A DNA stretch of 64,000 nucleotides from Paracoccaceae bacterium (GTDB lineage: Bacteria > Pseudomonadota > Alphaproteobacteria > Rhodobacterales > Rhodobacteraceae): contig JANSYL010000008.1 of the NCBI GenBank assembly GCA_024742455.1, positions 62,001 through 126,000 of the forward strand. The letters are read 5' to 3'. Numbering within the stretch: position 1 is the first letter of the stretch; every line of letters begins with the position of its first letter. Made by a program: the position numbers and the translations under genes. This document shows positions 8,127 through 10,996 of the stretch, piece after piece. The notes beneath the pieces were generated by a model. It saw nothing but the letters and a program-made list of their open reading frames with translations, was not told where the DNA came from and made no database searches.

Positions 8127-8225
8127 GGCTGCGGTCCTGTCGGTCGTTGCAGGCCACAGATACGAAGGCAGGCCGCAAGGGTCAACGGAGGGGGGCGGGC
8201 GGATGGCCCGTGATGGTGTCGCAGG

Positions 8226-8470
8226 AGGCGGGTGTTCTGCATGGCGGAACCTGACCCGCCAAGCCCCGCAGACCGGCCCCCGGCCCGGCAGCCCCACCCA
8301 AGCCGGGCGCGCGCCTGCCCGTGGGGTGGCGCCGCGCAACACCCGGTCTGCGCCCTTTATCCAAGCCAAGTCTTTGCACCGAATGATCGACGCGCACGGG
8401 CCCCAAAGCGCCAGCCCGCCGGGACGGGCAGGCGCGCGCCCTGCGCCTTCGGCGCGCACCGGGCGGAGAG
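8226..8470. repeat. Structured non-coding repeat, copy A (nuoB upstream region)
   Basis: This GC-rich stretch aligns by eye with 48826-49025. Shared parts, in order, are a GCGG-ACCTG-CCCGCC hairpin, a second CGCC...GGCG hairpin, the linker CTTTATCCAAGCCAAGTC-TT-CACC (CTTTATGCCAGCCAAGTCATT in the other copy), and a third hairpin GCCAGCCCGCCGGGACGGGC. I see no open frame with good coding character. It fills most of the 413-nt gap between the RT gene and nuoB. It may be a dispersed palindromic element or a structured RNA. Confidence 0.6.
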
Positions 8471-8539
8471 CGGACGTTCGCTGCTCGCGCGAGCCTGTCA
8501 TGCAGAGCTTTTGAAAGCTGACCCTGAGGCAGCGTAATG

Positions 8540-10015
8540 CTAGGTCGTTCCTGCCACAATTGTTTTGATCAAGTGGTTCATGGGAGAGGAATTGGCAAAG
8601 TACTCAAGCTTATGGTTCCGCGAGACCGCTAGTAGGTCCCTGTGGCCGACGGCGCTCGCCCATGAGAGCCAATCGGAACGACCAGCGACAAGGTGTTCGT
8701 CACGCATTTCCACGAGTCCAAATCGGTTGTCAGAGATTTCCAAGACCTTAGCTTTTGAGATGATCGAAGCATTCGCGTGATTATAAAGATTTGAAATAAT
8801 TTCAGGAGCGTAAACTGTACCCATCGCATGATCTTGCAAGACCCAAGCAAACCAGAACAGTTGGTATTCCTGCAAGCCGCCATAAGCTGCTGCTTTTGCG
8901 ACCATTTCCCCGATGAAGTCTTTATCTTCTATATGCTTGCAAAATGACCAAATGTTCTTGGCCAAGTGCGGAAAACTTGTCGCAAAGTGTGGAAGGTGCG
9001 GCTGCACTTCTTCAGGATGGTCACGAAACAAGCTCAAAACAAGCTCCGCATCATCTTCCTCCAGGTGTGGCGACTTTAGGAGATCTCGCAAGTATTCCAG
9101 TTCTTCGTCGGTCATCTGAATTTCTTCAAACGCAGCTTCAAAGTCTTCAAGATATGCGAGTTGCGCAGCCTTTCTGCGCTTGGCAAGCAAGTTGGCCTTT
9201 ACTTCGTCAATTTCATTTTCTACTCTTGCTGCGACAACGCCGCCAGCAACCGTCTTGCTGGGGTTTACTGTCAAACCCTTTTGACCAAGTAGCTTTTGTA
9301 TTAAATAAAAGTCTTCGATCAACTTGTCTTCATCGGCTGAATATAGCACAAAATCATCCATAAAACGCACAACGGCGCTGGACTTAATTCCATGGTGCTG
9401 TTCAATAAACCTCAAAAAGTCACTGCCGACCATTTTGGCGGGGTACATTCCTTGCGGCCAACAGTCGATGCTCCGCCCTGAGTTGCTTTGCCTCAAATAG
9501 GCACCAAGTGCGTTCACGTCTGCTATATCAACACCCAAATTGGCAAACCATGCAACAATATCATGGTGGTAAATTCCGTTAAAGTAGGAAGCGACGTCAA
9601 AGCTCAACGAATGGTCGAACTGTGCGTCATATGCGGCAATAGCTTTCTTGTAGCCCGTATAGGAAGCTGTTGCAGGAATAGGTTTCCCATCTTCAAAACG
9701 ATAACCAAAGTGTTTTTTGTGATTTTGGAAAGGCTTGCGAAACTTCGAACGGTTTCGGAAAATCACATCATACAAAAAGAACTCAGACACAGGGTCCAGC
9801 TTCACGGTTCGACGAAGATGGTTTCGAGGCTTTGACGCATATACACGCGTTTGCGCGAGAAACTGGTACGCTTTGTCCTCGTCAGCCTTGCTCAAACATC
9901 TTTGAATGTGGGCGTCAATTTCAGTCGCCCCATTGACAATGAGAAATCGACACGTTTCCATGGGAAACAATGTGCTGGCGAAATCGTATTCGAAGAACTC
10001 TCGGGACGTCTGCAT
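8540..10015 (-). CDS. Reverse transcriptase of the unknown-group/Abi (defence-like) type
   Basis: The 491-residue protein has RT hallmarks: motif [17 protein letters not shown] (Asp140), the QG of [12 protein letters not shown] (188-189), the catalytic FMDD at 218-221, and NPSKT (251-255). The palm ends near residue 270; about 220 residues follow, helical and acidic, without recognised motifs. There is no group II intron maturase domain, so it resembles stand-alone DRT/UG-type RTs linked to phage defence. The exact class cannot be set by eye. The DNA is visibly AT-richer than its neighbours, indicating transfer. It is co-oriented with nuo and splits nuoA from nuoB. No strong ribosome-binding site precedes ATG 10015. 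Confidence 0.85.
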
Positions 10016-10292
10016 GTCAAACTCGTAAAGTAAATCTATCTGGAACCTTACCTTAGATAAGCCGCTTTTGAAGGCTTGCGTAAAGCGAAAGTGTCCGACT
10101 CACGGTTGAGTAGATTCTTAGACCAAGTGCTCATCGCAGGATTGGTAGATCAACAAGCTAGCGGCAGCATGATCCACGCTGCCGCCTTGCAAAATGGAAC
10201 TAATCTCGTGGGTGCGTCGAATACTGCTTGTGACGGGCTGCACTGCAGCGGTCGCGCTCAGGCTTAAGGTCCGCTATCGGCCACCACCCCCC
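10016..10292. other. Non-coding region upstream of the RT gene, candidate ncRNA
   Basis: No credible gene is seen here. An 8-bp perfect stem, GCGGCAGC/GCTGCCGC with a 9-nt loop, lies at 10161-10185. The AT-rich base use of the RT gene continues to about 10200 and the GC-rich style returns after 10260. Several defence RTs are encoded beside a non-coding RNA, so this segment is the obvious place for one, but nothing in the sequence proves transcription. Confidence 0.35.
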
Positions 10293-10883
10293 TCACCGCC
10301 CCTTCTCCCCCAACGCCTCCATCTCCCGTAACAACCGCTCCACCGCGCCCTCCTTCGGGTCCGACGCCCCGGCGAACCACGTCACCCGCACAGGCCGAAA
10401 CCCCACGAAGCCCAGCACCTGCCCCCGCATCTGCCGCAGCACCGCGTCGCCATAAGCCAGGCGCAGGAAGGCGCGCGGGGTGTCGGATGTGATCACCACC
10501 CGTGCCGTGCGTCCGGTCAGCAGGGGTTTGGGCAGGCCGATGGGCGTCGTTTCCTCGGTCGAAAACGTGCGCCCCGGCACCAGCACCCGGTCGATCCAGC
10601 CTTTCAGCTTCGCGGGCGGCCCGCCCCACCAGAGCGGGAAGGCCAGCACGAAATGGCTGCACCATTCGAGGTTTTCCAGCGCCTCCTCCAGCACCGGCTC
10701 CATCGGTTTGACGCTGTCATACCCGGCGATCCCCCGGTCGATGTCGAAACTCAGATCGGACAACTGGCTCAGCCGCACGTCATGCCCCGCCGCTTCGGCC
10801 GCCTCGGCATAGCGGGCCATCGCCTGCCGGGTGATCGAGGCCGGGCCGGGATGGCCGTTCAGGATGAAGATGCGTTCAGCCAT
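10293..10883 (-). CDS. Flavodoxin-fold NAD(P)H dehydrogenase (quinone)
   Basis: The 196-residue protein matches the MdaB/KefF-type flavodoxin-fold quinone reductase family. It has an N-terminal FILNGHP phosphate-binding segment (residues 5-11), the mid-protein FPLWWGGPPAKLKGWIDRV motif (about 83-101), and a two-electron reductase length. It would bind FMN or FAD and reduce quinones with NAD(P)H in the cytoplasm. It lies between nuoA and the RT gene on the same strand. Whether it entered with the RT is unclear: its base composition is GC-rich like the host, unlike the RT. Confidence 0.88.
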   Translation of the reverse strand: MAERIFILNGHPGPASITRQAMARYAEAAEAAGHDVRLSQLSDLSFDIDRGIAGYDSVKPMEPVLEEALENLEWCSHFVLAFPLWWGGPPAKLKGWIDRVLVPGRTFSTEETTPIGLPKPLLTGRTARVVITSDTPRAFLRLAYGDAVLRQMRGQVLGFVGFRPVRVTWFAGASDPKEGAVERLLREMEALGEKGR

Positions 10884-10996
10884 GGGCGCGCCACGCCGCC
10901 GAAAAGCTGAAGATCAGGTTAACGAAACCGACTTTCGCGTCTGGAAACAATGGCATGGTCCGAATGCTCAACCTTAGGCACCCGGCCCGCGCCGCC

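What the first reader, a model, noticed from the sequence alone, without database searches (positions are those of the whole stretch)
8127..10996. Reverse-transcriptase island splits the complex I operon between nuoA and nuoB
Sequence shows nuoA (10997-11362) and nuoB (7593-8126), normally adjacent, separated by a stand-alone RT with FMDD and QG motifs and no maturase or intron structure, plus a quinone reductase. The RT DNA is AT-richer than its surroundings. DRT/UG-type RTs are known phage-defence proteins. Inserting one inside an essential respiratory operon, co-oriented so nuoB-F must be read through or restarted, is unusual. The ~220-residue C-terminal part has no motif I recognise.
Basis: partly seen in the sequence, partly recalled or inferred. 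Interest (0 to 1): 0.75.

Follow-up and report, generated by a model that had tools for sequence, protein, structure and literature searches.

The report
Anti-phage enzyme inserted in respiratory operon
A known type of bacterial anti-virus enzyme (the reverse transcriptase Drt5) has recently landed between two normally overlapping genes of the cell's main respiratory complex, and the genes downstream appear to have been rescued by a new promoter; the enzyme is a new member of a known family, while the repeatedly split operon is a modest surprise.

Summary
nuoA (10997-11362) and nuoB (7593-8126) are separated by 2,870 bp holding a flavodoxin-like NAD(P)H oxidoreductase (10293-10883) and an intact 491-aa reverse transcriptase (8540-10015). 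The RT is Drt5 (DRT type 5, UG16): NCBIfam NF041750 gives 662 bits against a cut-off of 550, so it is a known defence RT and not a retron or group II intron. It is AT-rich (46.7% GC, flanks 66%), catalytically complete and under purifying selection (dN/dS about 0.05 against its closest relative). Nucleotide homology with close relatives is essentially limited to the ORF, which argues against a linked ncRNA. The nearest relative by tree is collinear on both sides with nuoA and nuoB overlapping, so the 2.87 kb were gained in the window's lineage. Across the family most junctions are closed, but about a dozen other genera have it opened by other genes. A TTGAC-N17-TA promoter precedes nuoA in 73 of 73 loci. 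It precedes nuoB in 0 of 57 closed junctions and 16 of 17 opened ones, including this one (8157-8185). nuoB onward is therefore most likely restarted, not read through. Likely mechanism: single-gene, Class-1-like, protein-primed DNA synthesis causing abortive infection (inferred).

The parts
8540..10015 (-). drt5: antiviral reverse transcriptase, 491 aa, DRT type 5 (UG16)
   Evidence: NF041750 662 bits over cut-off 550; PADLOC Drt5 672 bits; catalytic D140, D220, D221 invariant in 11 homologues; dN/dS about 0.05
10016..10039 (-). short 5' leader of drt5, the only upstream sequence shared with close relatives
   Evidence: blastn similarity with L003, L006 and L002 ends at 10039, 10035 and 10026
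10040..10292 (.). spacer between drt5 and the flavodoxin gene; single copy in the genome, no match on plasmids, not shared with other drt5 loci
10293..10883 (-). flavodoxin-like NAD(P)H oxidoreductase (quinone reductase), second inserted gene
   Evidence: Flavodoxin_2 122 bits; not beside nuo genes in other genomes
10997..11362 (-). nuoA (complex I subunit A), upstream side of the split
   Evidence: Oxidored_q4
7593..8126 (-). nuoB (complex I subunit B), downstream side of the split
   Evidence: Oxidored_q6; NuoB subfamily model over cut-off
8157..8185 (-). proposed nuoB promoter TTGACC-N17-TATCTG, 59 to 31 nt before the start codon
   Evidence: Pattern in 16 of 17 opened and 0 of 57 closed junctions; background about 0.014 per 200 nt
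11369..11397 (-). proposed nuoA promoter TTGACC-N17-TACACC
   Evidence: Same pattern before nuoA in 73 of 73 loci
8301..8466 (.). dispersed intergenic repeat with inverted ends (arms 8302-8322 and 8424-8444) between drt5 and nuoB
   Evidence: the repeat finder I1; further copies in the same genome at 70-86% identity; plasmids of Salipiger and Pacificitalea

Best explanation
A stand-alone, horizontally acquired Drt5 (DRT type 5, UG16) gene was gained, together with an unrelated flavodoxin-type reductase, at the nuoA/nuoB junction in the lineage of this rhodobacterial genome. The junction tolerates this because nuoB has acquired its own sigma-70-like promoter, so nuoB and the genes after it are restarted downstream of the insert; the same compensation is seen in nearly every opened junction of the family. 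The RT itself most likely works as a single-gene, Class-1-like DRT: an RT palm plus a C-terminal helical-repeat domain that makes protein-primed DNA without a linked RNA template and stops phage growth by abortive infection. Shown by computation: identity, lineage-specific gain, absence of conserved flanking DNA, promoter pattern. Inferred: promoter activity, expression of the RT, the DNA product and the defence function of this copy.
For: Identity: NF041750 662 bits and PADLOC Drt5 672 bits; closest solved relatives by sequence are 7r08 (reverse transcriptase, E 1.4e-5) and, more weakly, 9wy8 and 9ioa. Intact active site; dN 0.043 and dS 0.84 against L003. Gain: collinear relative L125 with TGATG overlap of nuoA and nuoB, placed next to the window on the tree. 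Mobility: relatives of 84-92% identity lie in other genera in unrelated places, one 32 bp after a tyrosine recombinase (L003), others after SIR2 and/or HerA genes on plasmids (L045, L046). No ncRNA: DNA similarity stops 11-24 nt before the ORF in relatives that are 78-86% identical inside it, and flanks score no better than shuffles except for about 60 nt after the stop in L002; in L003 32 bp upstream and 6 bp downstream separate the RT from the neighbouring ORFs. Promoter: nuoA 73/73; nuoB 0/57 closed and 16/17 opened, of which the second set (6/7 against 0/13) was fetched after the pattern was fixed. Class 1 RTs carry a helical-repeat domain and make untemplated DNA (PMC13174585); DRT type 5 = UG16 with antiphage activity reported (PMC7699616; PMC13213688).
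Against: No transcript or phage data. The nuoB -10 element matches only 3 of 6 of the E. coli consensus. One opened junction (L131) lacks the strict pattern. The structure models are weak (mean pLDDT 41.6 and 53.4) and gave no significant fold match, so the class assignment rests on a sequence hit to 7r08 and on predicted helices. A short or sequence-divergent RNA cannot be excluded. The Drt5 mechanism is described as not yet established (PMC13213688).
Confidence: 0.78

Rival explanations
1. The RT uses an RNA template encoded nearby (in the 10040-10292 spacer or after the stop), as Class 2 DRTs such as DRT2, DRT9 and DRT10 do.
For: The 250-bp spacer upstream of the RT is non-coding and less GC-rich than the flanks; DRT2, DRT9 and DRT10 have such RNAs (PMC12632851).
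Against: The spacer is not shared with any other drt5 locus, including relatives 78-86% identical in the ORF; L003 has no room on either side; no Rfam match; the closest solved relative by profile is 7r08, which I recall as Abi-P2, a Class 1 enzyme.
Confidence: 0.12
2. nuoB onward is still transcribed by read-through from the nuoA promoter across the insert, and the promoter-like site is incidental.
For: All genes are co-oriented and no terminator-like site was found on this strand between nuoA and nuoB.
Against: The promoter pattern is absent from 57 closed junctions and present in 16 of 17 opened ones, against a chance rate of 1-2%.
Confidence: 0.2
3. The RT is a passenger or decaying gene with no current defence function.
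For: A close relative in another genus of the family is truncated by a TGA (L006/L042); Drt5 was found in only 3 of 199 family genomes searched; no TTGAC-type promoter was found before the RT.
Against: The ORF is intact, active-site residues are kept, and dN/dS is about 0.05 against L003.
Confidence: 0.1
4. nuoA and nuoB were separated by rearrangement or by movement of nuoA, and the genes between them are older residents.
For: In G071 nuoA and nuoB lie on different contigs.
Against: The window is collinear with L125 on both sides of the junction, about 7 kb on the nuoB side and 12 kb on the nuoA side.
Confidence: 0.04

Closest known systems
DRT type 5 (Drt5, UG16), described by Gao et al. 2020
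   Same: Full-length match over the curated cut-off, same length and domain order, single gene, found beside defence genes on plasmids of related bacteria
   Different: Only the location differs: between nuoA and nuoB, beside a reductase, not in a defence island
Class 1 UG/Abi RTs (AbiK, Abi-P2, AbiA, DRT4, Drt3b)
   Same: RT palm followed by a predicted all-helical C-terminal region; no conserved linked RNA; best solved relative by profile is 7r08, recalled as Abi-P2
   Different: Priming residue and DNA product unknown; sequence similarity to solved members is weak (E about 1e-5)
DRT9 (UG28), solved as 9ioa (identification from memory)
   Same: RT domain similarity, E 7e-5
   Different: DRT9 needs an ncRNA; none is conserved here
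Other genera of the family with an opened nuoA/nuoB junction
   Same: Same junction opened, nuoB preceded by the same promoter pattern
   Different: The inserted genes are TetR (AefR-like) regulators, a 322-326-aa family without Pfam match, GGDEF/EAL proteins or proteins ending in a VPLPASG motif, not an RT

Membership tests
DRT type 5 (Drt5, UG16) | Whole-protein match over the curated NCBIfam cut-off (550 bits) | tested here: met
   662 bits, residues 7-488, profile 1-483 of 484; PADLOC Drt5 672 bits
DRT type 5 (Drt5, UG16) | Complete RT active site (motif A Asp and xxDD) | tested here: met
   D140, D220 and D221 invariant in 11 homologues
DRT type 5 (Drt5, UG16) | Single gene, association with defence genes or mobile DNA | tested here: met
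   ORF-limited DNA homology; relatives next to SIR2/HerA on plasmids or next to an integrase. The window copy itself is not in a defence island
DRT type 5 (Drt5, UG16) | RT-dependent protection against phage | not testable with these tools
   Needs plaque assays with wild type and D220/D221 mutant
Class 1 UG/Abi RT | C-terminal helical-repeat (HEAT-like) domain | tested here: inconclusive
   All-helical prediction, pLDDT about 70-90 over residues 300-415, but low overall confidence and no significant fold match
Class 1 UG/Abi RT | Untemplated, protein-primed DNA synthesis | not testable with these tools
   Only the absence of a conserved flanking RNA was tested
Class 2 DRT (ncRNA-templated) | Conserved cis-encoded ncRNA next to the RT gene | tested here: not met
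   No flanking similarity beyond shuffles in any of 11 upstream comparisons, 1 of 10 downstream; no Rfam match
Group II intron RT/maturase | Match to the group II RT/maturase model over cut-off and intron RNA | tested here: not met
   20 bits against 300; no intron RNA in Rfam scan
Retron RT | Match to retron RT profile and adjacent msr/msd | tested here: not met
   No retron family among the 25 PADLOC hits shown or among NCBIfam hits; no RNA match

The most novel reading that the evidence does not exclude
The placement is functional: with no promoter of the family type in front of it, the Drt5 gene is read from the nuoA promoter, so the level of an anti-phage RT follows transcription of the respiratory operon, while nuoB onward has been uncoupled by its own promoter.
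Probability: 0.08. Interest if true: 0.65.

Novelty: new member of a known kind. Interest (0 to 1): 0.33.

Why it matters
The RT adds a well-delimited Drt5 for a family whose mechanism is described as not yet established, and the comparison gives a usable constraint: the mobile unit is the ORF itself with no conserved flanking RNA. The location matters for operon evolution: complex I genes that overlap in most of the family can be split, and nearly every split coincides with a promoter pattern in front of nuoB, which makes the order of events (promoter first or insert first) testable. If expression of the RT is tied to the nuoA promoter, it would also be a case of immunity wired to respiration.

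Tried and rejected
Structure: two AlphaFold2 runs with 3 and 6 sequences gave mean pLDDT 41.6 and 53.4; Foldseek against the PDB gave nothing significant, so fold evidence is not used beyond the helical C-terminal region. Degenerate integrase upstream of the window RT: none found. Target-site duplication or long repeats at the insert edges: only short chance-level repeats. The dispersed repeat at 8301-8466 as a general cause of junction opening: not found in the other opened junctions. Drt5 in phage records: none. DRT5S/DRT5L of PMC13275509 as the same family: they are described there as class 3 (multidomain, nitrilase or phosphohydrolase) proteins; the window protein shows only RVT_1 in Pfam, so I take this to be a naming clash (probably UG5) and did not use their data.

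Full report
Check of the observation. The window carries nuoD, nuoC, nuoB and nuoA on the minus strand, with nuoB at 7593-8126 and nuoA at 10997-11362. Between them are a flavodoxin-like NAD(P)H oxidoreductase (10293-10883) and a 491-aa RT (8540-10015). The RT ORF has 46.7% GC against 66.0% in its flanks.

What the RT is. NCBIfam names it Drt5 (NF041750, 662 bits, cut-off 550) and PADLOC agrees (672 bits). The next-best profiles are far below (Drt8 75 bits, UG20 74 bits). The group II RT/maturase model reaches 20 bits of a 300-bit cut-off, and no intron or retron RNA is detected. DRT type 5 is UG16 (PMC7699616). In 11 Drt5 proteins the active-site residues D140, D220 and D221 are invariant, and so are many C-terminal residues, for example the SDWL/SNWL region around W449. 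Against the closest relative (L003, 91.6% amino-acid identity) dN is 0.043 and dS 0.84, so the protein has been kept by selection.

How it moves. Close relatives sit in unrelated places: a Paracoccus MAG (84%), Thioclava sp. SK-1 (92%, 32 bp after a tyrosine recombinase), a copy broken by a TGA in another genus of the family (G074), and 51-52% identical copies on Phaeobacter and Roseovarius plasmids next to HerA, with SIR2 upstream of it in Phaeobacter. In the relatives compared the RT is poorer in GC than its surroundings. None of the other Drt5 loci compared is next to nuo genes. Drt5 was found in 3 of 199 family genomes.

No linked RNA. Similarity between the window and relatives that are 78-86% identical in the ORF ends 11-24 nt before the start codon. 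The 300 nt on either side score no better than shuffled sequence except about 60 nt after the stop in L002. In L003 the RT has 32 bp upstream and 6 bp downstream before the next predicted ORF. This separates Drt5 from DRT2, DRT9 and DRT10, which have a cis-encoded ncRNA (PMC12632851), and points to the Class 1 mode, in which the RT carries a helical-repeat domain and makes DNA without a template (PMC13174585). The best solved relative by profile is 7r08, which I identify from memory as Abi-P2. The AlphaFold models are weak; only the helical region around residues 300-415 is moderately confident.

The junction. In 94 other genera of the family 73 have nuoA and nuoB within 30 bp, 14 within 31-150 bp, 2 within 151-500 bp and 5 further apart (positions). 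A further sample of the family (lists truncated, so the count is a lower bound) gave five more with over 1 kb. The relative nearest to the window on a tree of NuoA, NuoB and NuoC, G084 (L012/L125), is collinear on both sides and has nuoA and nuoB overlapping. The window therefore gained the insert. Opened junctions are scattered on the tree (7 changes by parsimony), although some share inserts: TetR_C_7 regulators in L090, L091 and L128, and a 322-326-aa family in L038 and L131.

The promoter. A TTGAC-N17-TA pattern precedes nuoA in every locus examined (34; 73 of 73 counting). Upstream of nuoB it is absent when the genes are 77 bp or less apart (0 of 57) and present when they are 139 bp or more apart or on different contigs (16 of 17, window included). 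The pattern was written down from the window's nuoA and nuoB and the first loci, then applied unchanged to a new set of genomes: 6 of 7 opened against 0 of 13 closed. The chance rate is about 0.014 per 200 nt. Fisher's test on the pooled table gives 2.5e-15, but related genomes are not independent, so this number overstates the case; the tree does require several independent openings. In the window the site is at 8157-8185, 59 nt before the nuoB start codon. No such pattern lies in front of the RT or the flavodoxin gene. The one exception, L131, has TTGAAC-N17-TACCTC in the same region by eye.

Reading. The RT is a new member of a known family. The split is uncommon and recurrent, and goes with a new promoter for nuoB. 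Whether this copy defends, what DNA it makes, and what drives its expression are inferred and need the experiments listed.

Noticed in passing
window 8301-8466 (second, weaker copy at 48926-49010): A GC-rich dispersed intergenic repeat of about 140-165 bp with inverted ends (GGGCGAGCGCCTGCCCGT / ACGGGCAGGCGCTCGCCC-like); several copies in the same genome at 70-86% identity and on plasmids of Salipiger and Pacificitalea; no Rfam family.
   Followed up: partly
window 11429-12640: A flavin amine oxidoreductase gene between nuoA and an AMP-binding enzyme gene is missing from the otherwise collinear relative L125, so the nuoA neighbourhood gained a second insert on its other side.
   Followed up: partly
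window about 19782-21538: A stretch of about 1.8 kb has no counterpart in the collinear relatives L125 and L126.
   Followed up: no
L042 (G074) 6829-11409: A Drt5 copy about 90% identical but broken by TGA lies next to a patatin-like phospholipase and an E1-E2/JAB protein, a CBASS-like defence neighbourhood.
   Followed up: partly
L045 and L046: Drt5 directly follows a HerA-type ATPase, overlapping it by a few bases in L045; SIR2 lies upstream in L045. Whether HerA and Drt5 form one system there is open.
   Followed up: no
L147, L148, L149: Three viral contigs of IMG/VR encode Drt5 relatives of 40-41% identity, although no isolate phage record does.
   Followed up: no
L093 and L092 (G071): nuoA and nuoB lie on different contigs; nuoA sits well inside its contig, so this genus seems to have moved nuoA out of the operon, and both genes carry the promoter pattern.
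   Followed up: partly
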